Shown here one piece after another: positions 28,312 to 40,394 of a stretch of 64,000 nt of DNA. A program made the translations under genes and the position numbers. This DNA comes from Paraconexibacter algicola. GTDB taxonomy: Bacteria > Actinomycetota > Thermoleophilia > Solirubrobacterales > Solirubrobacteraceae. Positions within the stretch are counted from its first letter, which is position 1, and every line of letters begins with the position of its first letter. The stretch lies in contig NZ_PYYB01000001.1 in assembly GCF_003044185.1 (NCBI RefSeq), positions 310,001-374,000 of the forward strand. Reading direction: 5' to 3'. The notes beneath the pieces are model-generated. The model had not been told where the DNA came from and made no database searches. It worked only from the letters and a program-made list of their open reading frames with translations.

Positions 28312-28321
28312 GCACAGTCCG

Positions 28322-29431
28322 ATGCCCCACCCTGCCCTGACCGACCCGTTCACCGCCGGCGCGCTGGAGCTGGCGCACCGCGTCGTGATGGCGCCGCTGA
28401 CGCGCATGCGCGCGACCGGTGCCGGCAGCACCGCGCCGAAGCCGCTGAACGCGGAGTACTACGGGCAGCGGTCCTCTCCCGGCGGGCTGCTGATCTCGGA
28501 GGCGACCCAGGTCGCGCCCGACGGGCAGGGCTACCCGGACACGCCGGGCATCCACGAGCTCGAGCACGTCGCCGGGTGGCGCGGCGTGACGGACGCGGTC
28601 CACGAGCACGGTGGGCTGATCGTCGCGCAGCTGTGGCACGTCGGCCGGATCTCGCACTCGAGCTTCCAGCCGGGCGGTGGCCCGCCCGTCGCGCCGTCGG
28701 CGGTCACCCCCGCCGGCCGGGCGCTGGACGCGTCCTTCCAGCCCGTGCCGTTCGAGACGCCGCGCGCCCTCGCGCTCGACGAGCTGCCCGGGGTCGTGGA
28801 GCGCTTCCGGGCGGGAGCCCGCAACGCGCAGGAGGCCGGCTTCGACGGCGTCGAGATCCACGGCGCCAACGGCTACCTGCTGCAGCAGTTCCTCGAGCCG
28901 CACACCAACCTCCGCGACGACGCCTACGGCGGCTCGATCGCCAACCGCGCCCGGCTGCTGCTCGAGGTCGTCGACGCCGCGTGCGCGGTGCTCGGCAGTG
29001 AGCGCGTCGGCGTGCGCCTGAGTCCGTACGGGAGCGCCAACGACTCGTATGCGGGGACGGACGGGACGCTCGAGCTGTACGCGCACGTGCTCGCCGAGCT
29101 CGCCGCGCGCGACATCGCCTACCTGCACCTGATCGAGCCGCGAGGTCACGCCGACCGCCCCTCCCCGAGCGGGATCTCGTCGGTCGCGGCGCTGCTGCGC
29201 CCGCAGTGGCCCGGCACGCTGATCGCGGCCGGCGGCTTCACGCCGACCTCGGCCGCGGAGATCGTCGCGGCCGGCGACGCGGACGCGGTCGCGTTCGGCC
29301 GGGCGTTCATCGCCAACCCCGACCTGCCCGAGCGGATCGCCCGCGGCGCCGCGCTCAACGACCACGACCGCTCCACCTTCTACGGCGGCGACCACCGCGG
29401 CTACACGGACTACCCGACGCTCACGGGATAG
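28322..29431 (+). CDS. Old Yellow Enzyme-family NADH:flavin oxidoreductase
   Basis: A 369-residue FMN-dependent ene-reductase of the OYE class (NemA/OPR-like). The TIM-barrel elements are present: HRVVMAPLTRMRA near 20, LISEATQVAPDGQGYPDTPG near 60, AQLWHVGRIS, GFDGVEIHGANGYLLQQFLE with the His-Gly-Ala-Asn active-site pair near 180, and IAAGGFTPTSAAEIVAAG plus VAFGRAFIANPDLPERI at the end. Such enzymes reduce activated C=C bonds and nitro compounds. It is monocistronic, with a hairpin after it. Confidence 0.94.
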   Translation: MPHPALTDPFTAGALELAHRVVMAPLTRMRATGAGSTAPKPLNAEYYGQRSSPGGLLISEATQVAPDGQGYPDTPGIHELEHVAGWRGVTDAVHEHGGLIVAQLWHVGRISHSSFQPGGGPPVAPSAVTPAGRALDASFQPVPFETPRALALDELPGVVERFRAGARNAQEAGFDGVEIHGANGYLLQQFLEPHTNLRDDAYGGSIANRARLLLEVVDAACAVLGSERVGVRLSPYGSANDSYAGTDGTLELYAHVLAELAARDIAYLHLIEPRGHADRPSPSGISSVAALLRPQWPGTLIAAGGFTPTSAAEIVAAGDADAVAFGRAFIANPDLPERIARGAALNDHDRSTFYGGDHRGYTDYPTLTG

Positions 29432-29524: not shown

Positions 29525-30199
29525 TCAGCGCGCGGGCGCGAGCCGCTCGAGCTCCAGGTTCCCCGGGACCGGTCCGTCGGAGAGGACGAGATGCGGCGCG
29601 GCCCGCGCCGCCGCGAGCTCGGATGCCCCGATCGTCGACCACGACGCGGCCGGGAGGAGCTCCACCATCCCTGGTCGGACGAGTGCGACCCGGGCGTGGT
29701 CGAGCGCACGCACGACGGGGCCGTCCGCCCGCTGGTCCTCCCCGCGCAGGACCACCGTGTCGATCCCGACCGCCGCGCACGCGAGCAGGAGGTCCACGAG
29801 CTGATCGGCGCAGAGATCGGCGAGCTCGTCGTCGGCGGGGGCCCCGAGCCCGTCCGCCAGCGCGGCCGGACCGCGGACGGCGAGCGCCAGGCGTGGCCGC
29901 CCGCCGAACAGCTGCCTGAGCGTCCCGACGAGCGTCACGAGCGCCGCGCCCTGCGGCTGCTCGCACAGCGGGCTGTCGGCGTCGTAGATCGCGTCGAACG
30001 GATCGGCGGCCCCGCCGACCACGGTCGCGAGCGCACCGGTCTCGAAGCCGCCGTCCCACCCGAGGACGAGCATGTCCGGGCGGGCCAGGGCGACGGCCTC
30101 ACGCAGTGCGTACGCCCACCGCTCCGGCTCGACGAGCGCGACCGCCGGGTCCTCACCGGTCAGCCGCGCAGCGAGCGCGTCGAGGGACAGCGCCAGCAT
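29525..30199 (-). CDS. Unrecognised 224-residue protein, last gene of the carboxylase operon
   Basis: A soluble 224-residue protein with no signal peptide and no motif I can name with confidence. The order of hydrophobic strands (DMLVLGWDGGFE; RPRLALAVRGPAALADG; GIDTVVLRGED; ARVALVRPGMVELLP) and the ADDELADLCADQLVDLLLACA helix faintly recall the uroporphyrinogen-decarboxylase/methylcobamide-methyltransferase barrel, but it is shorter and lacks key motifs I could check. It begins 4 nt after the nitroreductase-like gene, so it belongs to the operon and may be an accessory or substrate-specific factor. Confidence 0.6.
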   Translation of the reverse strand: MLALSLDALAARLTGEDPAVALVEPERWAYALREAVALARPDMLVLGWDGGFETGALATVVGGAADPFDAIYDADSPLCEQPQGAALVTLVGTLRQLFGGRPRLALAVRGPAALADGLGAPADDELADLCADQLVDLLLACAAVGIDTVVLRGEDQRADGPVVRALDHARVALVRPGMVELLPAASWSTIGASELAAARAAPHLVLSDGPVPGNLELERLAPAR

Positions 30200-30203
30200 G
30201 GCC

Positions 30204-30992
30204 TCAGCCGGTGGCGGTGCCCGTGTAGCGGACGACGTCGGCGACCGGCCGGCGCGCCACCGGTCCGAACTTTCCCTCCGGCCAGCCGACCGGGACGACG
30301 CAGTAGATCTTCGTCCCGCGCTTGAGCCCGAGGGCCCGTCGCCAGTCCGGCTCGTAGATCGTGTGCCAGGTCGTCAGACACGCCGCGAGGCCGTGCGCCC
30401 GCGCCGCGAGGAGCGTGTTCTCGACCGCCGGGTAGATCGACGCGGCCTCGCCGGTCGAGAAGAACCGCACGAGGTTGGGGAGCATCTTCAGCGTCCCGAC
30501 CGGCCCGACCGCCGCGCAGCCCGCGAGCGTGTGCCGCAGCCCCTTCACCATCTTCGTGATCACCGTGCCGGTGAAGTCGTAGGTGAAGACGATCAGCGCC
30601 GGGGTGTCGTCGAAGTGCGCCGCCTGGTGGCGCAGCGCGTCGTGGACCTTCGTCCACTTCTCGGCCGTCGTGAACTCGGGGACGAGCGGCTCCTGCGCGC
30701 GCGAGTAGAACCGCTGCTGGCGCCGCCAGATCCTGCCGCACTTCGCCATCGTCTCCCGGTCGTCGACGATCACGAACCCGTAGGTCTGCGTGTTGCCGGC
30801 GCTCGGTGCCCAGGTGGCGGCCTCCACGAGCCGCTCGAGCAGCTCGCGGGGAACGGGATCGGGCTTCAGCTTGCGCATCGCGCGCATGGTCGACATGACC
30901 TCCATGATCGGCGCGTCCTCCCCGAGGACGACGCCGTGCTTGGCCGCGGCTGCGACGGCGGCCGGGTGCGGTTCAGCGGTCACGGCGCTCAC
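30204..30992 (-). CDS. Nitroreductase-family flavoprotein
   Basis: A 262-residue FMN-binding nitroreductase-fold protein. IMEVMSTMRAMRKLKPDPVP followed by LVEAATWAPSAGNTQTYGFV is the family N-terminus with FMN contacts, and the later AVENTLLAARAHGLAACLTT is the second FMN segment. GTG 30992 overlaps the stop of the HyuB-like gene (GTGA at 30989-30992), so the two are coupled. Members reduce nitro groups, enones or iodotyrosines, and some act in cofactor metabolism. Its place in a carboxylase operon suggests a redox step on the ketone substrate or product; that is inference. Confidence 0.85.
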   Translation of the reverse strand: MSAVTAEPHPAAVAAAAKHGVVLGEDAPIMEVMSTMRAMRKLKPDPVPRELLERLVEAATWAPSAGNTQTYGFVIVDDRETMAKCGRIWRRQQRFYSRAQEPLVPEFTTAEKWTKVHDALRHQAAHFDDTPALIVFTYDFTGTVITKMVKGLRHTLAGCAAVGPVGTLKMLPNLVRFFSTGEAASIYPAVENTLLAARAHGLAACLTTWHTIYEPDWRRALGLKRGTKIYCVVPVGWPEGKFGPVARRPVADVVRYTGTATG

Positions 30993-33127
30993 CACGACCA
31001 CCCCCCGAGGTAGTCGATCCCCACGGGCGGCTCGTCGCGCCGCCACTGCGCGACGAACTCGTCGTACGGGAGGGACCGGGCCCGCCGCGCGTCGCGCTCG
31101 GCCGTCCGCGCGGCCGTCGTCGCGTCCTCGTCGACGAGCAGCGTCTCCTCGTCGTAGACGACCTTGTAGAGCTCCCGCGCGCGCCAGTGGCTGATACGCG
31201 TCTCGCGGAGGTCGCGCATGACGTCCTGGGGGTCGCGCTCGAGCACGTCACCGTAGCCGCCGCCACCACCGACCTGGAGGATCCACATGTCCCCCGGCTT
31301 GTTCAGGTCGGCGGACTGCGTGCAGCGCTTGCTCTCCACCGTGCCGGGCAGGCCGCCGTCGCGGTGCAGTTCGTGCGCGGTGTAGGGGACGTCCGCAGCG
31401 TTGTCGCGCAAGGCCGCGACGACCGCTTCCGACGACGAGCCCTTGAACACGGTCAGCGGGTTGGCGCCCGACCCGTACCCGCCGAACAGTCCCGGCGTGG
31501 TGGGGAACTTGGAGCCGGTGCCCATGCAACCGTAGAAGAACTCGGGGACTCCCCAGACCATGTACATGCACTCGACGGACGAGCCACCGCGGTGGCGGCC
31601 CGGCCCGTGGTTGTCGACGGTCAGCCGCCGGCCGAGCGTGAGGACCGGCAGCTCGGTCTCGCGGTCCTCGATCTCCCCGTAGTCGGCCATCGAGGCGAAG
31701 AACGGGGCGCAGGCGTGCTCGCCGTCGCGGTCCGCGTGTGCGCCGCCGCCCATCGAGTTGATGTCGATCATGAGGTTCGCCACCGGCGCGCCCCACTGGT
31801 TCAGGCCGCCGTAGTAGAGCGACTGCGTCATCCCGTACCACGGGGCGATGATCTCGATGTCGCCCGGCCGGTTGTAGGCCATCTTCGACATGCACTGGTG
31901 CATCGCGGTCTGCCACGCGCAGGCGCCGATCATCCCGAGCCCATTGGGGACCTCGTTGCCGGCCGTGGAGATCGAGTCCTCCTCGAACTCGAAGTCCAGC
32001 GCGGCGACGTATCCCGCGTTGCGGGGCAGGTCGGCCCAGAAGAACATCTGCAGGCTGTTCATGAACAGCGCGCGGGCGAACGTCGGGGCGGTGTTGATCG
32101 CGCGGTCGGGGATCATCGGCGCGGTCCCGACGGACCGGCAGATGATCCGGTCGTGGCGCTTCTCGACCTCCAGGCCGAACTTGAGGAGCCGGTCCTCCAG
32201 CAGCGTCGTGTCGACGAAGTGCGTCGCGCGGTAGATGCCGTCGGGCAGCTCGCTGAAGCGGCGGCGGACCTCGGCCTCCGTGTTCTCCAGCGCGCCGCGC
32301 AGGACGGCGACGACCAGGTCGCGCCCCTTCTCCCGGACGAGCTCCAGGACCTGCTGCTCGATGCGCATGCAGGCGCTGAGCTTCGCCCGCATGTCGATCA
32401 GCTGCATGAGCGGATCGCGGACGTTGTTCTGCAACAGGTTCACGACGTCCCGGCGGAACGTGTAGTTCTCCGCGATCTTGATCGGGCTGATCTTCAGGCC
32501 CTCGTCGTAGACGCTCAGCGGCGAGGCGGAGAGGCCGCCCGGCTCGGTCGCGCCGTTCTCGCCCTCGTGGATCGTGGCGCCCGCCCAGCCGATGATGACC
32601 CCGTCCACGAAGATCGGGATCCAGAGGGTCTGGTCGGCGTTGTGGACCCCGCCGTAGCGGGCATCGTTGTGGTAGTAGACGTCGCCCGGACGGACCCCCA
32701 CGGTGGGCTCGTCGGCCCACTGCTTGACGATGTGCTTGAGCGGTGCCGAGGCGCACGCGGAGAAGACGACCACGCCGGAGGACGACGCCAGCGCCAGGTC
32801 TCCCGCCGCGCTGTAGAGCCCGGTCGTGAGGTCCCCCCACTTGGCGCCGGGAGCGGCGCCGGTCTGCTCGAGCATCTCCTTTGCGGACTCGAGGATGATC
32901 TCGAGCCGGTTCTGCGAGATCGTCGCGTCGACGGGATCGACGCCGCTCGCGAGCGCCTCGTCCTCGAGCGCGGTCCGGGGTGCAAGCGCGTTGCCGTCCA
33001 TGATGGAGGCGTCCGGTCCGTACATGACCGGCCGCGCGTGCAGCAGGTCGGTGAAGAAGGCGTCGGCGTCGATCGGCGCCGCGACCTCGGGGGCGTCCGG
33101 CGTCAGGGTCTGGGGCGGGGGGTTCAT
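30989..33127 (-). CDS. Hydantoinase B / acetone-carboxylase alpha-like subunit
   Basis: A 712-residue HyuB/AcxB-family protein. Typical regions are VDATISQNRLEIILESAKEM near 60, DVYYHNDARYGGVHNADQTL near 150, VDGVIIGWAGATIHEGENG, LSVYDEGLKISPIKIAENYT, and late GRHRGGSSVECMYMVWGV. The N-terminal extension and DEGLKISPIKI are more like acetone/acetophenone carboxylase large subunits than like hydantoinases or 5-oxoprolinase. AAGGAGGAG lies before ATG 33127, and the start overlaps the HyuA stop (ATGA). In acetone carboxylase this subunit carries the carboxylation site for enol-phosphate and CO2. Confidence 0.92.
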   Translation of the reverse strand: MNPPPQTLTPDAPEVAAPIDADAFFTDLLHARPVMYGPDASIMDGNALAPRTALEDEALASGVDPVDATISQNRLEIILESAKEMLEQTGAAPGAKWGDLTTGLYSAAGDLALASSSGVVVFSACASAPLKHIVKQWADEPTVGVRPGDVYYHNDARYGGVHNADQTLWIPIFVDGVIIGWAGATIHEGENGATEPGGLSASPLSVYDEGLKISPIKIAENYTFRRDVVNLLQNNVRDPLMQLIDMRAKLSACMRIEQQVLELVREKGRDLVVAVLRGALENTEAEVRRRFSELPDGIYRATHFVDTTLLEDRLLKFGLEVEKRHDRIICRSVGTAPMIPDRAINTAPTFARALFMNSLQMFFWADLPRNAGYVAALDFEFEEDSISTAGNEVPNGLGMIGACAWQTAMHQCMSKMAYNRPGDIEIIAPWYGMTQSLYYGGLNQWGAPVANLMIDINSMGGGAHADRDGEHACAPFFASMADYGEIEDRETELPVLTLGRRLTVDNHGPGRHRGGSSVECMYMVWGVPEFFYGCMGTGSKFPTTPGLFGGYGSGANPLTVFKGSSSEAVVAALRDNAADVPYTAHELHRDGGLPGTVESKRCTQSADLNKPGDMWILQVGGGGGYGDVLERDPQDVMRDLRETRISHWRARELYKVVYDEETLLVDEDATTAARTAERDARRARSLPYDEFVAQWRRDEPPVGIDYLGGWSW

Positions 33128-35250
33128 GCGGACTCCTCCTTGTCGAGCACGAGGAACCCGTGCTGGTTCATGGTCGCCGTCCACCGGGGCTCCACCACGA
33201 CCGTGGTGTCGCGTCCCTCCAGGACGGCGGGTCCCTGCACGGCGTCGCCGTCGCCGAGCAGGTCGTAGTCGTAGATCGGGCTGTCGGTGAAGCCCAGGCC
33301 GCGCCACCACACCTGACGCGAGCCCTTCAGGGCGGCCTCGACGCCGCCGGTGGACGGCGGGACGTCCTGCGGTTCCCAGTGCGCTCGCGGGACCGAGGCC
33401 CGCAACCGCAGGGTCTCGATCGAGACGCCGACCTCGCTGGTCAGCGCGAAGTCGCCGAAGCGGTCGGCGTACTCCTTGAAGTAGGCCTGGAGGACCGCGG
33501 CGAGGTCGGCCTTGTCACGGATGCGCAGGACCGGCGACTTGATCGTCGTCACGTACAGCTGTCCGCCCGACCGCAGGTCGAGCTCCAGCTGGTAGACGAT
33601 CTCGGTCGCGTCGTGCCCCTCGTCGGCGAAGTCGGCCTCGGCCTGCCGGGCGAAGTCGTCGAGCACCGCGTCGATCGCGGGGAAGTCCTCGAAGACCGTC
33701 CCGAACAGCGGGTTGTAGAGCGTGAAGTGCTCGGACTGCTCGTAGATGTGCAGGAGGTCCAGGCCGGCCGCGCCGGAGGCGCTGAACACTGGGGAGTGCG
33801 GCGGCACGACCACCCGGGGGATCTGCAGGACGTCCGCGTAGCCGCACGCGTGGAGCGGGCCGCCACCGCCGAAGCTGAAGATCGTGAACGACCGCGGGTC
33901 GTACCCCTTCAGGACGACCTCCTTGAAGATCGCGTCACCCATGTTGTTGTCGACGACCTGCCGGATCGCCGCAGCCGCCGTGACGACGTCGACGCCCATC
34001 GGCCGGGCGACGCGACGCTCGATCGCCCGCTCGGCCCGCCTGACGTCCAGCGCCAGCTCGCCGCCGTGGTAGTGGTCGGGGTTGAGGTACCCGAGCACCA
34101 CGTTGGCGTCGGTCGTCGTCGGCTCCGTGCCGCCCTGGGCGTAGCACGCGGGCCCGGGAGTGGACCCGGCGCTCCGCGGCCCGACCTGCACCCCCTTGTA
34201 CGGGTCGTGCGAGGCGATCGAGCCGCCGCCGGCGCCGACGGTCTTGAGGTCCATCATCGGCATCTGCACGAGCCACCGGTCGATCACCGGGTTGAACTCG
34301 TAGAACCGCACCGACCCCTTCACGACGACGCCGATGTCGAACGACGTGCCGCCCATGTCGGTGGTCACGACCTTGTCGTAGCCGAACGCGTCGGCCATGT
34401 GACGGGAGCCGTAGAGCCCGGCGACCGGCCCGGCGTGGATCGTCTTCAGCGGCGTGGTGCGGGCCAGCCCACCCATGCCGCCGGAGTTGTGGACCAGCAG
34501 CAGCGAGCCCGCGTATCCGTGACCGCGGAGCTCGTCGCGCAGCTCGCTCATCTTGTCGCCGGTGAAGCGGTGCAGGTACGCGTCGAGGATCGAGGTGCTC
34601 GTCCGGACGTACTCGCCCGAGCGCTTGCTCACCTCGTGACTGAGGATGACCGGGAAGCGGCCCAGGTACGCGCCCGGGAACTCCTCCTCGATCACCCGGC
34701 GGACGAGCAGCTCGTGCTCGGGGTTCTTGAACGCCCACAGGAACGACACGACGAAGCCCCGCACGCCGCGGTCGACGAGGTCGAGCACGCGGTCCCGCAC
34801 CTCGTCCTCGTCCAGCGGCATCACGACGTTGCCGGCGGAGTCCACGCGCTCCCGCAGCCCGACGATCATGTCGCGCGGGATCAGCGGCTCGGGACGCTGC
34901 GCCTTCGCGAGGTTGCGGTTCTCCTGGATGGAGAGGCCCTCGCCGTAGCCGCGACAGCGGGAGACGGGCACGACGTCCTCGAACCCCATGGTCGTGATGA
35001 GGCCGAGCCGCGGACCGGTGCGCTCGATCAGCGCGTTGGTGCCGAGCGTCGTCGCGTAGCGGATCGCGCTGGTGCGGCCGAGGAGATCCTCGGCGCTGGT
35101 GTCGAACGCCTGCGCGAGATCGCCGACCGCGGTCATGAACCCCTGGCTGAGGTCGTGGTGGGTGGTGAGCGCCTTCGCGGACGCGACGGTCCCGTTCTCG
35201 GTGGCGAAGCAGTCCGTGAACGTGCCGCCGATGTCGACGTTGATCTCCAT
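33124..35250 (-). CDS. Hydantoinase A / acetone-carboxylase beta-like subunit (second copy)
   Basis: A 708-residue HyuA/AcxA-family protein of the ASKHA ATP-binding type. The phosphate-1 loop is VDIGGTFTDCFATENG at 5-20, the second is VVTTDMGGTSFDIGVVV near 290, and the adenosine region GFGGGGPLHACGYA-like FSFGGGGPLHACGYADVL near 460. MDLKTVGAGGGSIA and the C-terminal GFTDSPIYDYDLL are the forms seen in acetone carboxylase beta subunits. It shares only the family plan with the other HyuA-like protein here. Its ATG overlaps the stop of the zinc subunit by one base. Confidence 0.93.
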   Translation of the reverse strand: MEINVDIGGTFTDCFATENGTVASAKALTTHHDLSQGFMTAVGDLAQAFDTSAEDLLGRTSAIRYATTLGTNALIERTGPRLGLITTMGFEDVVPVSRCRGYGEGLSIQENRNLAKAQRPEPLIPRDMIVGLRERVDSAGNVVMPLDEDEVRDRVLDLVDRGVRGFVVSFLWAFKNPEHELLVRRVIEEEFPGAYLGRFPVILSHEVSKRSGEYVRTSTSILDAYLHRFTGDKMSELRDELRGHGYAGSLLLVHNSGGMGGLARTTPLKTIHAGPVAGLYGSRHMADAFGYDKVVTTDMGGTSFDIGVVVKGSVRFYEFNPVIDRWLVQMPMMDLKTVGAGGGSIASHDPYKGVQVGPRSAGSTPGPACYAQGGTEPTTTDANVVLGYLNPDHYHGGELALDVRRAERAIERRVARPMGVDVVTAAAAIRQVVDNNMGDAIFKEVVLKGYDPRSFTIFSFGGGGPLHACGYADVLQIPRVVVPPHSPVFSASGAAGLDLLHIYEQSEHFTLYNPLFGTVFEDFPAIDAVLDDFARQAEADFADEGHDATEIVYQLELDLRSGGQLYVTTIKSPVLRIRDKADLAAVLQAYFKEYADRFGDFALTSEVGVSIETLRLRASVPRAHWEPQDVPPSTGGVEAALKGSRQVWWRGLGFTDSPIYDYDLLGDGDAVQGPAVLEGRDTTVVVEPRWTATMNQHGFLVLDKEESA

Positions 35251-35600
35251 CAGGCCACGCTCCCCTCACGCTCGCGCCGGGCCTTCAGCCAGTCGAGGTC
35301 GATCTCGATGTCCCGGTGCAGCGGATGCCCGGGCGGCAGGTACTCGGCCTCGACCTGCGTGCCGCAACCGGGGCAGCAGTACTCGACGATCCGGCACCAG
35401 GCCGGGTCCGGCGCGTAGCTGTACTCCGCGTCGATCTTCGCCTCGTAGACCTCGCGCGGGTCGCGGTCGTGCAGCAGCAGCCCGCGCTTGTAGTCGCCCC
35501 GGGCGTCGCCGAGGTCCTGCCCGCAGACACGGCAGTGCCAGCGCTCCGCGTCCAGGTCGATCTCCAGGTACTCCGTGATCCGCTCTCGCGTGGTGCTCAT
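35250..35600 (-). CDS. Acetone-carboxylase gamma-like zinc protein
   Basis: A 116-residue protein with two paired-cysteine knuckles: CRVC (23-26) and CCPGC (75-79), with an extra Cys at 69. DLGDARGDYKRGLLLHDRDP and PGHPLHRDIEIDLDWL complete the pattern of acetone carboxylase gamma (AcxC) and the small acetophenone carboxylase subunit, which bind zinc. It overlaps both flanking HyuA-like genes (ATGA upstream, TGATG downstream). Its presence is the main reason to read this operon as a ketone carboxylase rather than a hydantoinase or oxoprolinase. Confidence 0.88.
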   Translation of the reverse strand: MSTTRERITEYLEIDLDAERWHCRVCGQDLGDARGDYKRGLLLHDRDPREVYEAKIDAEYSYAPDPAWCRIVEYCCPGCGTQVEAEYLPPGHPLHRDIEIDLDWLKARREREGSVA

Positions 35601-37396
35601 CGGTCGTTCCTCGTCAGTCGTCCGTTGCCGTACTCGTCCACGGAGAACGCCCAGCCGGGCGGCACCGCGATGGTCGTGTCGCTCGCCTCGATCACCGCGG
35701 GTCCGTCGACGCGCGCGCCCGGGGCGAGCGCCGCCAGGTCGTGGATCGCGGTGGGCTCCGGGGCGCTGCGCCAGCGGACGTCCCGGGTGGCACGAGCGGT
35801 CGTGCTCGCGCCGTTCGTCGGCTGCGCGACGAACGCGTGGTGGGCGAGCCGGGCGACGGCCCGCACCTGCGTGCGGTCGACGCCGTGCCGCGTCACCGCG
35901 GTCGTCGCGATCTCGACGTCCTCGGCGCTGAACCCCTCGCCGCGCATGTCGCGCGACGCGCGGGCGCGGAGCTGCTCCTCCACCCCGTCCCCCGGGGCCG
36001 CCGCGTACGTGTGGGTGACGTCGGCGCTCTGCGCCCCGAACGCGGAGAAGACCGCGCTGAAGGGGAGCGTGATCACCTCGCGGACGCCCAGCCGCTCGGC
36101 GACTCCGGCCGCGTGCGTGGGGCCGGCGCCGCCGTAGGCGAGCAGCGTCGCGTCCGCGGGGGTGAGGCCCAGCTGCGCGAGCTCCTGCGCGATCCGCGCG
36201 CCCATGTTCTCGTGCAGTCGCGCGCGCACCTGCTCCGCGGCGGCACCCGGGTCGTCGGCGTCCAGGGTCTGCAACGCCGCGCGCGCCCGCTCGCCGTCGA
36301 GCGGCATGGTTCCCCCGAGGAAGCTGGACGGCTCGATGATCCCGAGGACGACGTCGGCGTCGGTCACCGTCGGTGCGGTCCCGCCGAGGGCGAACGCCGC
36401 GGGCCCTGGCCGGGCGCCGGCGCTCTGCGGCCCGACCTCGATCGTCCCGTCCTCGAGGCGGTGCGCGATCGATCCGCCGCCCGCGCCGAGCACGTGCAGG
36501 TCGGGCATCGAGAACGACAGCTCGACGCCCTCGACGGTGCCGTGCTCCCGCATCGCGACCCTGCCGTCGCGGACGACGCCGACGTCCAGCGAGGTGCCGC
36601 CGACGTCGAACGTGACCAGCGCCGGCACGTCGTAGAGCCGGGCGATGATCTCCGCACCCATCAGGCCCGCGGTCGGACCGGAGTTGTACGTCTTCCCCGC
36701 GATCGTCTTGGCGACGCGGGCGCAGCCGCCGTCGTTGTGGACCACCAGCAGTGGCCGGCGGTACCCGTGGTCACGCAGCCAGTCCTCGCAGCGGTGGAGG
36801 TACCTCGCCACCTCGGGGTGCACGTAGGCGTTGAACAGCGCCGTGGACGTGCGACGCGTGTCGTCGGGATCGTCGTCCACCTCGTGGGAGAGCAGCAGCG
36901 GCACGGCGTCGAGGCAGTGCTTGGGATAGTGGCGCTCGAAGCCCTCGCGAACCGCGCGCTCGGCGGCGGCGTCCCCGGCGGGGAGCGAGCAGACCAGCGC
37001 GCGGGCGCTGCCCGCGAGCAGGTCCTTCGTCGTGGCGACCAGGGCGTCGTCGGCGCCGACGGCGCCCACCATCCCGGTTTCCACGAACCGTCCCGCCGCG
37101 GCCTGGGCGGTCCCTTCGGCGCCGGGCGCGACCAGCAGGCCGATGCGCGGCCCGGTCCGCTGGATGACGGCGTTCGTGCCGACGGTCGTGGCGTAGCGCA
37201 CGCACGCGGTCTCGCGCAGCAGCGCGGGGACGGGCAGGTCCAGGCTCGCGGCGGCGCGCTCGACGACGTCCTGGAAGCAGACGGCGAGATCGTGTGGCGT
37301 GGTCAGCACCTTCACCGTGAGCGCCTGTCCGTCGCGGACGACGTAGGCGTCGGTGAACGTGCCACCCGTGTCGATGTCGATCGTGGTCGACGGCAC
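35597..37396 (-). CDS. Hydantoinase A-like subunit (first copy)
   Basis: A 599-residue HyuA-family ASKHA protein, about 110 residues shorter than its neighbour. IDIDTGGTFTDAYVVRDG at 5-22 and VTFDVGGTSLDVGVVRDG near 265 are the phosphate loops, and LLAYGGAGPTHAAGVAERL the later glycine-rich motif. It lacks the acetone-carboxylase-beta style C-terminus. GTG 37396 has AGGAGAGG upstream; a TAGGTT -10-like box at 37453-37458 gives a leader of about 50 nt. A second, smaller HyuA homologue is what distinguishes acetophenone carboxylase (two alpha-type subunits) from acetone carboxylase. Confidence 0.9.
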   Translation of the reverse strand: MPSTTIDIDTGGTFTDAYVVRDGQALTVKVLTTPHDLAVCFQDVVERAAASLDLPVPALLRETACVRYATTVGTNAVIQRTGPRIGLLVAPGAEGTAQAAAGRFVETGMVGAVGADDALVATTKDLLAGSARALVCSLPAGDAAAERAVREGFERHYPKHCLDAVPLLLSHEVDDDPDDTRRTSTALFNAYVHPEVARYLHRCEDWLRDHGYRRPLLVVHNDGGCARVAKTIAGKTYNSGPTAGLMGAEIIARLYDVPALVTFDVGGTSLDVGVVRDGRVAMREHGTVEGVELSFSMPDLHVLGAGGGSIAHRLEDGTIEVGPQSAGARPGPAAFALGGTAPTVTDADVVLGIIEPSSFLGGTMPLDGERARAALQTLDADDPGAAAEQVRARLHENMGARIAQELAQLGLTPADATLLAYGGAGPTHAAGVAERLGVREVITLPFSAVFSAFGAQSADVTHTYAAAPGDGVEEQLRARASRDMRGEGFSAEDVEIATTAVTRHGVDRTQVRAVARLAHHAFVAQPTNGASTTARATRDVRWRSAPEPTAIHDLAALAPGARVDGPAVIEASDTTIAVPPGWAFSVDEYGNGRLTRNDR

Positions 37397-37452
37397 TGGC
37401 GGTCCTCTCCTCGGTGGGGCTCGCGCGGCCGCTCCTCGTCGACCGCACGACC

Positions 37453-37530
37453 AACCTAGGCCGAGGCCGCGGGGGTCGCTCAGGAGGCTCGGCGGAACGA
37501 TCGGGCACGCGTTGTGGGACCTGCACAACG
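37453..37530 (-). promoter_or_regulatory. Carboxylase operon promoter and candidate PucR-protein site
   Basis: TAGGTT (complement of 37453-37458) precedes the first HyuA gene with a Shine-Dalgarno-containing leader. About 52 bp upstream of it lies the dyad CGTTGTG-N7-CACAACG (37510-37530, perfect 7-bp arms), where an activator would bind. The dyad also lies just past the regulator gene stop and could instead act as its terminator, although it has no T tract. Confidence 0.45.
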
Positions 37531-37534
37531 GCGC

Positions 37535-38785
37535 TCAGTCGCCCAGGGAGCCGAGCAGCCGCAGCGCGGTCTCGAGCTCGTACCGGCGGTCCGTGACCGA
37601 GCGACCCAGCAGCGCCTCGGCCTGTCGCACGCGGTACGTGACGGTGTTCTGGTGGATGCCGAGCCGCTTCGCGGTGACGCCCGTGCGCAGCTGCTCCTCG
37701 AGGTGCACCTGCACGGTCGCGCGGATCCGCGTGGTGGCGTCGTCGGCCGCGGCGAGCGCGCCGAGCTCACGCGCGACGAAGCGGCGGGCGCGGTCGGTGT
37801 CGGCGAGCAGCAGCGAGGACACGACCACCCTGCCGTAGCGGACGACCTGGCCGCGCCGGCCGGACCGCTCCGCCATCTCGCGTGCCCGGAGCGCCTCGGT
37901 GTGGGTGTCGACGAAGCCGCGGATGCCGTCCTCGACCTCGCCGGTCGCGGCGTGCAGGCCGCGCAGCGCGTCGCTGTCGCGGGCCGCGTGGTCCAGGAGG
38001 TCGGGATCCGGCTCGTCCTCGAAGCCGATCCACGCCCAGAGCGTCGTGCGGCCGTCGGGGACGAGCAGCGGCCGCGGTGCGCCCATCGAGGCGGCGAGCC
38101 GACGGGCACCCTGCTCCAGGCGGTGGATGACGTCCTCGGCCTCGTGCTCCGGATGGGTCCACAGCACGAGACCGAGGTGGCGCCGACGCAGGTCGTAGGA
38201 CAGTCGCTGGGTGGCGACGTCCAGGTCGATCCCCTCCCCCGACAGGAGCCGCACCACCGTCTCGTGGCGCAGCGCGGCCGCGGAGCGCGCCCACCGCTCG
38301 CGTTGGACGGCGTACTCCTCGGTGACCTCCTCGGCGATCGCGTCGACGTAGTCGAAGACGAACTGCATCGAGTGGTCGACCGCCTGCATCAGCTCGTCCG
38401 GGTCGTCGATCCGCGTGACGAACTCGCGCCGCCACAGCCGCCAGAAGTACATCGTCCCCAAGCGGTATGCGCGCAGCAGCGTCTGCAGCGGCTGGCCGCG
38501 CTTGACCATGATCTCCGCGTAGTCGATCGCGCCCGCCGGAGCGGAGGCCTCGAAGACCGGGCTGCCGTCGGCGAGCATCCGGAAGATCTGCTCGAAGTTG
38601 TCGTAGGCGCTGGACTGCAGGCCGGCGGCAAGCTCGGGGTCGGAGGCGAGCTCGGGCTGGTGCGCGTTGATGTAGACGACGCACTCGTCGACGAGGTCCC
38701 GCAGGCGCGGGAGCATCTCGGCGGCCGTCTGCCGCCGCACGTCGTCCCAGGCCGAGGGATCGGTCACTGGGTCGTGGTAGGGCAT
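37535..38785 (-). CDS. PucR/CdaR-family transcriptional regulator
   Basis: A 416-residue regulator. The N-terminal half is helical (RsbRD-like; LQSSAYDNFEQIFRMLADG and QTLLRAYRLGTMYFWRLWRR), the centre is a GGDEF-like/PucR middle domain, and the C-terminus is the PucR helix-turn-helix, GVTAKRLGIHQNTVTYRVRQ followed by AEALLGRSV. It sits between the ligase and the carboxylase operon, reading the same way, and PucR-type proteins usually activate adjacent catabolic genes when substrate is present. TACGTT lies 9 nt before its ATG, so it may be made from its own leaderless message. Confidence 0.9.
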   Translation of the reverse strand: MPYHDPVTDPSAWDDVRRQTAAEMLPRLRDLVDECVVYINAHQPELASDPELAAGLQSSAYDNFEQIFRMLADGSPVFEASAPAGAIDYAEIMVKRGQPLQTLLRAYRLGTMYFWRLWRREFVTRIDDPDELMQAVDHSMQFVFDYVDAIAEEVTEEYAVQRERWARSAAALRHETVVRLLSGEGIDLDVATQRLSYDLRRRHLGLVLWTHPEHEAEDVIHRLEQGARRLAASMGAPRPLLVPDGRTTLWAWIGFEDEPDPDLLDHAARDSDALRGLHAATGEVEDGIRGFVDTHTEALRAREMAERSGRRGQVVRYGRVVVSSLLLADTDRARRFVARELGALAAADDATTRIRATVQVHLEEQLRTGVTAKRLGIHQNTVTYRVRQAEALLGRSVTDRRYELETALRLLGSLGD

Positions 38786-38794
38786 GGCGTGGTC

Positions 38795-38800
38795 AACGTA
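38795..38800 (-). promoter_or_regulatory. -10-like TACGTT before the PucR-type gene
   Basis: Ends 9 nt before ATG 38785, in the 46-nt gap after the ligase stop codon. Confidence 0.3.
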
Positions 38801-38831
38801 CCGCTGGTCCGCTGGCCGCGCGACCCGTCGC

Positions 38832-40394
38832 TCAGCCCGCCGCCCCGGCCGCCGAGCGGTACTCGTCGCGCAGCGCGCGCTTGAGGACCTTCCCGGCGGG
38901 CGAGCGCGGCAGCTCGCGGAACAGCACGTGCTTGGGCGCCTTGACCGAGCCGAGCCGCGCCTTGCAGCGTGCCCGCACCGCGTCGACGTCGAGGACGTCG
39001 AAGCCCGGCTTCATCTGCACGACCGCGGTCACCGCCTCGCCCCACACCTCGTCGGGCAGCCCGATGACGGCGACGTCCGCGACGCCCTCCATCGCGTGGA
39101 TCGTCTGCTCGATCTCTGACGGCCAGACATTGAAGCCGCCCGTGATGATCATGTCCCGCTTGCGGTCGACGAGGTAGACGAACCCGGCCTCGTCCACGCG
39201 CCCGACGTCGCTCGTGCCGTGCCAGCCGCCCGGCCGATGGTTCGCGGCGCTCTGCTCGGGGTCCTCGAAGTAGCCCGGGGTCACGAGCGAGCCGCGCACC
39301 ACGATCTCGCCGACCTCGCCCGGCGGCAGCAGCGTCCCCTCGTCGTCCATGATCGCCACCTCGGCGACCAGCGACGGCCGTCCGGCGCTCGCCAGCCGCT
39401 CCGGGTGCGCGGCGACGGCGTCGGCGTGGTCCTGCGGGGACATCACGGTGAGGATCATCGGCGCCTCCGCCTGCCCGAAGGTCTGCGTCATGACCGGCCC
39501 GAAGACCTCGATCGCCTCGCGGAGCTTGCTGACGCTCATGGGCGCCGCTGCGTAGATGAAGTGTCGCAGCGACGAGTAGTCGTGGTCGCGCACTCCCGGA
39601 TGGGCCAGCAGCGCGTAGATCGCCGTCGGCGGGAGGAACAGCCGGGTGACCCGGTGCCGTGCGATCGACTCCAGCAGCCGTTGCGGGTCGACCCCGTCGT
39701 GCACGACGACCGTCCCTGCGCGGGCGAACACGGGAAAGCAGATCGGACCGGCGGCATGGGTCATCGGCGCCGCCATCGCCATCACCGGCGGCCGCTCGGG
39801 CTCCGGCATGTGGGCGGCGAACGCGAGGTTCATGAGCTCGACCATGCCGTGCGTGAGCTGCACGGCCTTCGAGCGGCCGGTCGTCCCGCCCGTCGGGAAG
39901 AGGACGGCCGGGTGGTCGCGGTCGTGGGGCGGGCGCGGCACCCGCGCCCCCTCGGCCGCCATCCACTCCGCGAGCACCGGGTCGCCGTCACGCCCTCCCG
40001 TGTCCAGGCAGACGGCCGTGTGGACCTGCGGCAGCTCCGCGCGGATCTCGTCGGTCAGCGCGACGAGCGACGGGTGGTAGAAGAGCAGCTCGCACCCGGT
40101 CAGCCCCAGCAACGCGACGAGGTCCTTGGCGACCGCCCGGGTGTTGAGCGGGACCCACGACGCGTCGGCGCGCAGCGCGCCGAGGATGCAGACGAAGGCC
40201 ATCGGCGCGTTGGGGGAGAGCACGCCGACCCGGTGGCCTTTGCCGACGCCGGCCGCGAGGAGCGAGGCCGCGATCCGGTGGGACGCCTCCTCGACCTGCC
40301 GGTAGGTCATCCGCCCGGCGCCGTCGGCCATGACGAAGCAGTCGCCGTCGGGTGCCTCGCGCACGCCGCGGTCGAAGGTGTCGATCAGGTGCAC
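38832..40394 (-). CDS. AMP-forming acyl-CoA ligase
   Basis: A 520-residue ANL-superfamily acid:CoA ligase. The phosphate-binding loop is LFPTGGTTGRSKAVQLTH near 170, the adenylate motif includes MTQTFGQAEAPMIL, the hinge segment GTSDVGRVDEAGFVYLVDRK is near 400, and the C-terminal lysine motif is SPAGKVLKRAL near 505. GTG 40394 is supported by TACGCT 7 nt upstream. If the downstream operon makes a beta-keto acid, this enzyme could activate it to the CoA thioester, as benzoylacetate-CoA ligase does after acetophenone carboxylation; substrate is inferred from context only. Confidence 0.92.
   Translation of the reverse strand: MHLIDTFDRGVREAPDGDCFVMADGAGRMTYRQVEEASHRIAASLLAAGVGKGHRVGVLSPNAPMAFVCILGALRADASWVPLNTRAVAKDLVALLGLTGCELLFYHPSLVALTDEIRAELPQVHTAVCLDTGGRDGDPVLAEWMAAEGARVPRPPHDRDHPAVLFPTGGTTGRSKAVQLTHGMVELMNLAFAAHMPEPERPPVMAMAAPMTHAAGPICFPVFARAGTVVVHDGVDPQRLLESIARHRVTRLFLPPTAIYALLAHPGVRDHDYSSLRHFIYAAAPMSVSKLREAIEVFGPVMTQTFGQAEAPMILTVMSPQDHADAVAAHPERLASAGRPSLVAEVAIMDDEGTLLPPGEVGEIVVRGSLVTPGYFEDPEQSAANHRPGGWHGTSDVGRVDEAGFVYLVDRKRDMIITGGFNVWPSEIEQTIHAMEGVADVAVIGLPDEVWGEAVTAVVQMKPGFDVLDVDAVRARCKARLGSVKAPKHVLFRELPRSPAGKVLKRALRDEYRSAAGAAG

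What the first reader, a model, noticed from the sequence alone, without database searches (positions are those of the whole stretch)
29525..40394. Candidate ketone-carboxylase system with two HyuA-type subunits, a zinc subunit, a nitroreductase-like protein and an acyl-CoA ligase
Seen: a leftward operon with overlaps at almost every junction encodes HyuA (599 aa), a paired-CxxC protein (116 aa), HyuA (708 aa), HyuB (712 aa), nitroreductase (262 aa) and an unknown 224-aa protein, with a PucR regulator and an AMP-forming ligase upstream. Known: acetone carboxylase has alpha, beta and gamma subunits (HyuB, HyuA, zinc protein); acetophenone carboxylase has two HyuA-like subunits, a HyuB-like subunit and a small zinc subunit, and its product is activated by a CoA ligase. 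Inference: this is an ATP-dependent carboxylase for a ketone other than acetone, followed by CoA activation, with two extra components not described for either enzyme.
Basis: partly seen in the sequence, partly recalled or inferred. Interest (0 to 1): 0.78.

Follow-up and report, generated by a model that had tools for sequence, protein, structure and literature searches.

The report
Five-subunit Apc-type ketone carboxylase operon
This soil actinobacterium carries a complete, distant relative of the known five-part enzyme that attaches carbon dioxide to the ketone acetophenone; the 'unknown' last gene is that enzyme's fifth part, so the system is a new member of a known kind, with an unknown substrate and one unexplained extra flavoprotein gene.

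Summary
The operon is real and the reading 'ATP-dependent ketone carboxylase' holds up. The gene order is exactly apcA-apcB-apcC-apcD of acetophenone carboxylase (Apc), and each of these four proteins has its matching Apc subunit as best relative in the PDB and NCBIfam. One, the 224-aa 'unknown', is the fifth Apc subunit, ApcE (epsilon): a profile of the genes filling that slot in other Apc operons finds it at 2.6e-19, and its confident model (pLDDT 92.6) has the ApcE structure 9fou as best PDB match. The other, the nitroreductase, is a real extra: it lies between apcD and apcE here, follows apcD in one relative, and is absent from the eight other readable members of the clade. The enzyme sits in a ten-member actinobacterial clade outside the branch of the acetophenone enzyme and keeps two of seven residues proposed to line its ketone pocket, so the substrate is probably another ketone. 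The operon type is widespread: 532 relatives in one scan; 77 of 81 readable loci carry an ApcE-family gene. Verdict: new member of a known kind, modest interest.

The parts
38832..40394 (-). AMP-forming acyl-CoA ligase (520 aa), first gene in transcription order
   Evidence: PF00501/PF13193; closest PDB entries FadD8 and feruloyl-CoA synthetase; homologues next to apc genes in L031, L032, L068, L070, L121
37535..38785 (-). PucR-type transcription regulator (416 aa)
   Evidence: HTH_30 and GGDEF_2; homologues near apc genes in L031, L068, L071-L074, L115, L137
35597..37396 (-). Apc alpha' subunit (ApcA type, 599 aa, shorter than the 658 aa of 5l9w_b)
   Evidence: 5l9w_b 2.5e-94; NF042960 359 bits; ATP motifs kept, no RERxDSxG fingerprint
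35250..35600 (-). Apc gamma subunit (ApcB type, 116 aa), four zinc cysteines C23, C26, C76, C79
   Evidence: 5l9w_C 8e-38; NF042974; four Cys invariant in 12 relatives
33124..35250 (-). Apc alpha subunit (ApcC type, 708 aa), proposed ketone kinase
   Evidence: 5l9w_B 1e-194; NF042975 695 bits; fingerprint RERVDSAG at residue 133; tree
30989..33127 (-). Apc beta subunit (ApcD type, 712 aa)
   Evidence: 5l9w_A 1.2e-84; NF042976 318 bits; the four metal-site residues kept
30204..30992 (-). FMN nitroreductase-family protein (262 aa), accessory, role unknown
   Evidence: PF00881 9e-25; nitroreductase fold by Foldseek on a model of moderate confidence; 62% identical gene after apcD in L031
29525..30199 (-). 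Apc epsilon subunit (ApcE family, 224 aa)
   Evidence: profile of the same slot in other operons 2.6e-19 against best decoy 0.33, hhalign 99.2%; model pLDDT 92.6; Foldseek best match 9fou ApcE, E 1.6e-7

Best explanation
The operon encodes a complete Apc-type, biotin-independent ketone carboxylase: alpha, alpha', beta, gamma and epsilon. By analogy with Apc of Aromatoleum aromaticum, alpha (33124-35250) phosphorylates the enol form of a ketone with ATP, alpha' (35597-37396) phosphorylates bicarbonate with a second ATP, beta with gamma around it forms the core, and epsilon (29525-30199) is needed to couple the two half-reactions. The beta-keto acid formed is then activated by the CoA ligase (38832-40394) and split by a thiolase encoded elsewhere. 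PucR (37535-38785) probably controls expression. Shown here: subunit identities, gene order, motifs and the epsilon assignment. Inferred from A. aromaticum: all of the chemistry. Unknown: the ketone (probably not acetophenone itself) and the role of the nitroreductase.
For: Each core protein has its own Apc subunit as best PDB match and best NCBIfam model. Gene order and the alpha fingerprint meet the published criteria. ATP motifs are present in both HyuA proteins. The Apc alpha/alpha' clade is separate from acetone carboxylase and hydantoinase. The 224-aa protein is ApcE by profile and by fold. CoA ligases adjoin apc genes in several relatives, and thiolases in L032 and L037.
Against: No activity is shown and only one Apc enzyme has been characterised. 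No NCBIfam equivalog cut-off is reached. Two of the three polar residues proposed for bicarbonate binding in alpha' differ (E248 to N, K281 to D, D274 kept; read from the alignment). Beta is 712 aa, nearer the published acetone carboxylase length than the Apc length. No thiolase lies in the operon or among the flanking genes examined.
Confidence: 0.85

Rival explanations
1. It is an acetophenone carboxylase in the strict sense: same substrate as the A. aromaticum enzyme, with the ligase as benzoylacetate-CoA ligase.
For: Same subunits, same gene order, a CoA ligase alongside.
Against: Only two of seven proposed pocket residues are kept and the replacements are shared by the whole ten-member clade. 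Alpha lies in a 49-member clade (support 1.0) that excludes the A. aromaticum enzyme. NCBIfam scores are about half of the equivalog cut-offs or less.
Confidence: 0.12
2. The HyuA/HyuB proteins form an ATP-dependent lactam or hydantoin hydrolase, and the zinc protein is incidental.
For: Shared superfamily; caprolactamase and hydantoinase score well against alpha.
Against: Alpha', gamma and epsilon are all present and absent from such hydrolases; scores and tree favour Apc. The genome has a separate hydantoinase-type HyuAB.
Confidence: 0.03
3. The nitroreductase is a working part of the pathway: an FMN reductase that prepares the ketone, for example by reducing an enone or a nitro group, or a partner of the complex.
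For: It overlaps apcD by 4 bases and follows apcD in a second genome. A nitroreductase-family fragment lies upstream of apcA in L059.
Against: Eight of ten clade members show no such gene near apc. Homologues occur away from apc genes (L154-L156). Its substrate cannot be read from its relatives.
Confidence: 0.3

Closest known systems
Acetophenone carboxylase ApcABCDE with Bal, Aromatoleum aromaticum (PDB 5l9w core, 9fou ApcE; PMC5214803, PMC4729919)
   Same: Subunit set, gene order A-B-C-D with E downstream, ATP motifs, four zinc cysteines, alpha fingerprint, neighbouring CoA ligase
   Different: Nitroreductase gene between apcD and apcE; five of seven proposed pocket residues changed; alpha' 59 aa shorter; epsilon 224 aa and far diverged; PucR regulator; alpha in a separate clade
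Acetone carboxylase AcxABC (PDB 5svb, 5m45)
   Same: HyuA/HyuB core and a zinc gamma subunit
   Different: Acx has one HyuA only, gamma gene after beta, a longer gamma (168 aa), no alpha' and no epsilon
ATP-dependent hydantoinase / 5-oxoprolinase / caprolactamase (PDB 7hk5, 6yra)
   Same: HyuA and HyuB folds, ATP activation of a carbonyl group
   Different: No alpha', gamma or epsilon; lower scores; outside the Apc clade
Apc core operon reported in Paraconexibacter AEG42_29 (PMC11737030)
   Same: Same order of bacteria (Solirubrobacterales), core subunits annotated
   Different: Only the four core subunits are mentioned; its sequence was not compared here

Membership tests
Apc-type ketone carboxylase (criteria of PMC5214803) | Gene order apcABCD(E) | tested here: met
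   Order alpha', gamma, alpha, beta, with epsilon downstream after one inserted gene
Apc-type ketone carboxylase (criteria of PMC5214803) | Two different HyuA subunits, fingerprint R/KERiDsxG in alpha only | tested here: met
   RERVDSAG at residue 133 of alpha, absent from alpha'
Apc-type ketone carboxylase (criteria of PMC5214803) | ATP-binding motifs (GGT, DxGGT, PGP) in both alpha and alpha' | tested here: met
Apc-type ketone carboxylase (criteria of PMC5214803) | Short gamma subunit with four conserved cysteines | tested here: met
   116 aa against 168 aa in Acx; C23, C26, C76, C79
Apc-type ketone carboxylase (criteria of PMC5214803) | Grouping with Apc in a tree | tested here: met
   Apc alpha/alpha' clade, support 0.96; the all-alpha node itself is weak (0.195) and no solved alpha' was in the tree
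Apc-type ketone carboxylase (criteria of PMC5214803) | Beta subunit about 50 aa shorter than in Acx | tested here: inconclusive
   712 aa, with about 34 extra residues at the N-terminus relative to 5l9w_A; the paper calls this criterion approximate
Apc-type ketone carboxylase (criteria of PMC5214803) | Epsilon subunit (ApcE) | tested here: met
   profile and fold matches
Apc-type ketone carboxylase (criteria of PMC5214803) | Carboxylation of a ketone with two ATP | not testable with these tools
   needs purified enzyme
Acetophenone carboxylase in the strict sense | NCBIfam equivalog cut-offs for ApcA-ApcE | tested here: not met
   359/1250, 146/250, 695/1500, 318/1500 bits; no ApcE hit for the window protein alone
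Acetophenone carboxylase in the strict sense | Ketone-pocket residues L81, F281, N282, P285, I333, Q344, T345 | tested here: not met
   T, I, H, P, I, D, L in the window; the pocket is itself a tentative proposal
Acetone carboxylase (Acx) | acxABC: single HyuA, gamma gene after beta, no alpha' or epsilon | tested here: not met
   compare Acx-type loci L159-L163
Hydantoinase / oxoprolinase | Two-subunit HydAB without gamma | tested here: not met
   gamma, alpha' and epsilon present

The most novel reading that the evidence does not exclude
The ten-member actinobacterial clade is an Apc branch for a different class of ketone, with a changed pocket (Thr, His, Asp), and in two genomes a flavoprotein acts in the same pathway on the ketone or its precursor: a carboxylation pathway not yet described.
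Probability: 0.25. Interest if true: 0.5.

Novelty: new member of a known kind. Interest (0 to 1): 0.3.

Why it matters
Only one Apc enzyme had been characterised when the 2017 structure paper appeared, and the role of epsilon was open. This work identifies the 'unknown' gene as epsilon and shows that an ApcE-family gene is nearly universal in Apc-type operons (77 of 81 readable loci), whereas the 2017 paper found close orthologues in only two other organisms. The clade, which includes named strains of Amycolatopsis, Prauserella and Nocardia, gives a test set for the proposed substrate pocket.

Tried and rejected
Acetone carboxylase and hydantoinase readings: rejected on gene order, scores and tree. 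The 224-aa protein as an unrelated unknown: rejected; searches with that one sequence found nothing, and only profiles from the same slot in other operons and the fold search resolved it. The nitroreductase as a standard part of Apc operons: rejected; one other full-length case among the loci examined. The nitroreductase model has only moderate confidence (pLDDT 69.3 from five sequences); its fold search shows an FMN nitroreductase fold with BluB, iodotyrosine deiodinase and NfnB among the best matches, and no function. The ligase substrate could not be read: it lies below every NCBIfam cut-off shown.

Full report
OBSERVATION. In transcription order: ligase, PucR, HyuA' (599 aa), zinc protein (116), HyuA (708), HyuB (712), nitroreductase (262), 224-aa protein. 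Junctions are +46, +138, -4, -1, -4, -4, +4. Pfam confirms every family except the last, for which it finds nothing. G+C is 70-71% from the gamma gene to the nitroreductase, against 74.5% for the window.

IDENTITY OF THE CORE. Against the PDB, each of the four core proteins has its own Apc subunit first: 5l9w_b for HyuA' (2.5e-94), 5l9w_C for the zinc protein (8e-38; acetone carboxylase gamma 2e-8), 5l9w_B for HyuA (1e-194; 652 bits against 355 for hydantoinase and 334 for acetone carboxylase) and 5l9w_A for HyuB (1.2e-84). NCBIfam agrees on all four, although no equivalog cut-off is reached. The order A-B-C-D is the one given for Apc operons in PMC5214803. Other criteria of that paper also hold: the fingerprint RERVDSAG is in alpha and not in alpha', the ATP motifs are in both, and gamma has its four cysteines. 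The four residues of the beta metal site (D65, H123, D126, H148 in 5l9w_A) are kept (alignment, read by hand). In a tree of HyuA-type proteins with four PDB references (197 tips), both window proteins fall in an Apc alpha/alpha' clade (support 0.96), apart from acetone carboxylase, hydantoinase and caprolactamase. Limits: the PDB references cover only about their first 500-520 residues, no solved alpha' was included, and the node uniting all alpha subunits is weak (0.195). The identity of alpha' therefore rests mainly.

THE 224-AA PROTEIN IS EPSILON. In other loci the gene right after apcD is almost always a protein of about 200-340 aa. A profile of these genes, made without the window's clade, finds the 224-aa protein at 2.6e-19, against 0.33 for the best unrelated, reversed or shuffled decoy; profile-profile comparison gives probability 99.2. 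Of 68 aligned family members, 34 hit the NCBIfam ApcE model at E <= 1, best 5.4e-25; the window protein alone does not. Several members also hit the URO-D family. The AlphaFold2 model has pLDDT 92.6. Its best PDB matches are three chains of ApcE itself, 9fou (E 1.6e-7, TM-score 0.72 by query), followed by uroporphyrinogen decarboxylases. An ApcE-family ORF is present in 77 of 96 loci (that profile was built from genes of the same loci, so the independent test is). Of the 19 without, 15 are cut off by contig ends before the slot, which leaves four (L031, L037, L126, L139) among 81 readable ones.

THE NITROREDUCTASE. This is the only real extra. A 62% identical gene follows apcD in G121, a genome of the same family. 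That locus has no epsilon gene, although G121 has ApcE-family genes elsewhere. No other full-length homologue was found near the Apc loci examined; a nitroreductase-family fragment, cut by the contig end, lies upstream of apcA in L059. More distant relatives stand where no Apc gene was seen nearby (L154-L156). It is an accessory gene; that it reduces the substrate or its precursor is a guess.

SUBSTRATE. Alpha belongs to a ten-member clade (support 1.0) of Solirubrobacterales, Pseudonocardiaceae and Nocardia, inside a 49-member clade (support 1.0) that excludes the acetophenone enzyme. Of the seven residues proposed to line the ketone pocket only P285 and I333 are kept in the window. Across the clade the pattern is Thr, Ile/Val/Met, His, Pro, Ile/Val, Asp, Ile/Leu. 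This argues for another ketone, but the pocket assignment is itself tentative in the source paper. The ligase resembles fatty-acid and feruloyl-CoA ligases and gives no sharper clue.

DISTRIBUTION. One scan of a collection of 84,980 species genomes gave 532 relatives of the zinc subunit, so the operon type is widespread. It was not found in seven other genomes of the window's genus, several of them incomplete. An Apc core operon has already been reported for another member of the order, Paraconexibacter.

VERDICT. A complete Apc-type ketone carboxylase operon with its epsilon subunit and a CoA ligase: a new member of a known kind. Anatomy and subunit identities are shown; the chemistry is inferred from a single characterised enzyme; the substrate and the role of the nitroreductase are open.

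Noticed in passing
L059:5430-5834 (-): A PF00881 nitroreductase fragment, cut by the contig end, lies upstream of apcA in a different subclade of Apc operons. A second association of the two families, or chance.
   Followed up: partly
L037, L126, L139, L031: Four Apc loci with readable downstream DNA have no ApcE-family gene; in L039 and L125 the gene lies upstream of the operon, and in L129 and L135 further downstream.
   Followed up: partly
L159-L163: Acetone carboxylase-like loci (HyuA-HyuB-zinc protein order) occur in the same order of bacteria, in two cases (L159, L162) with a PucR-type regulator gene next door.
   Followed up: no
G121:C1:1842302-1843192 (L165): An ApcE-family ORF far from both apc loci of that genome; its neighbours were not read.
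   Followed up: no
window 28316-29431 (+): An old-yellow-enzyme type FMN oxidoreductase (PF00724) lies convergent to the end of the operon; whether it belongs to the pathway is unknown.
   Followed up: no
L157 (G000 contig 2): The same genome carries a separate two-subunit hydantoinase-type HyuAB.
   Followed up: no
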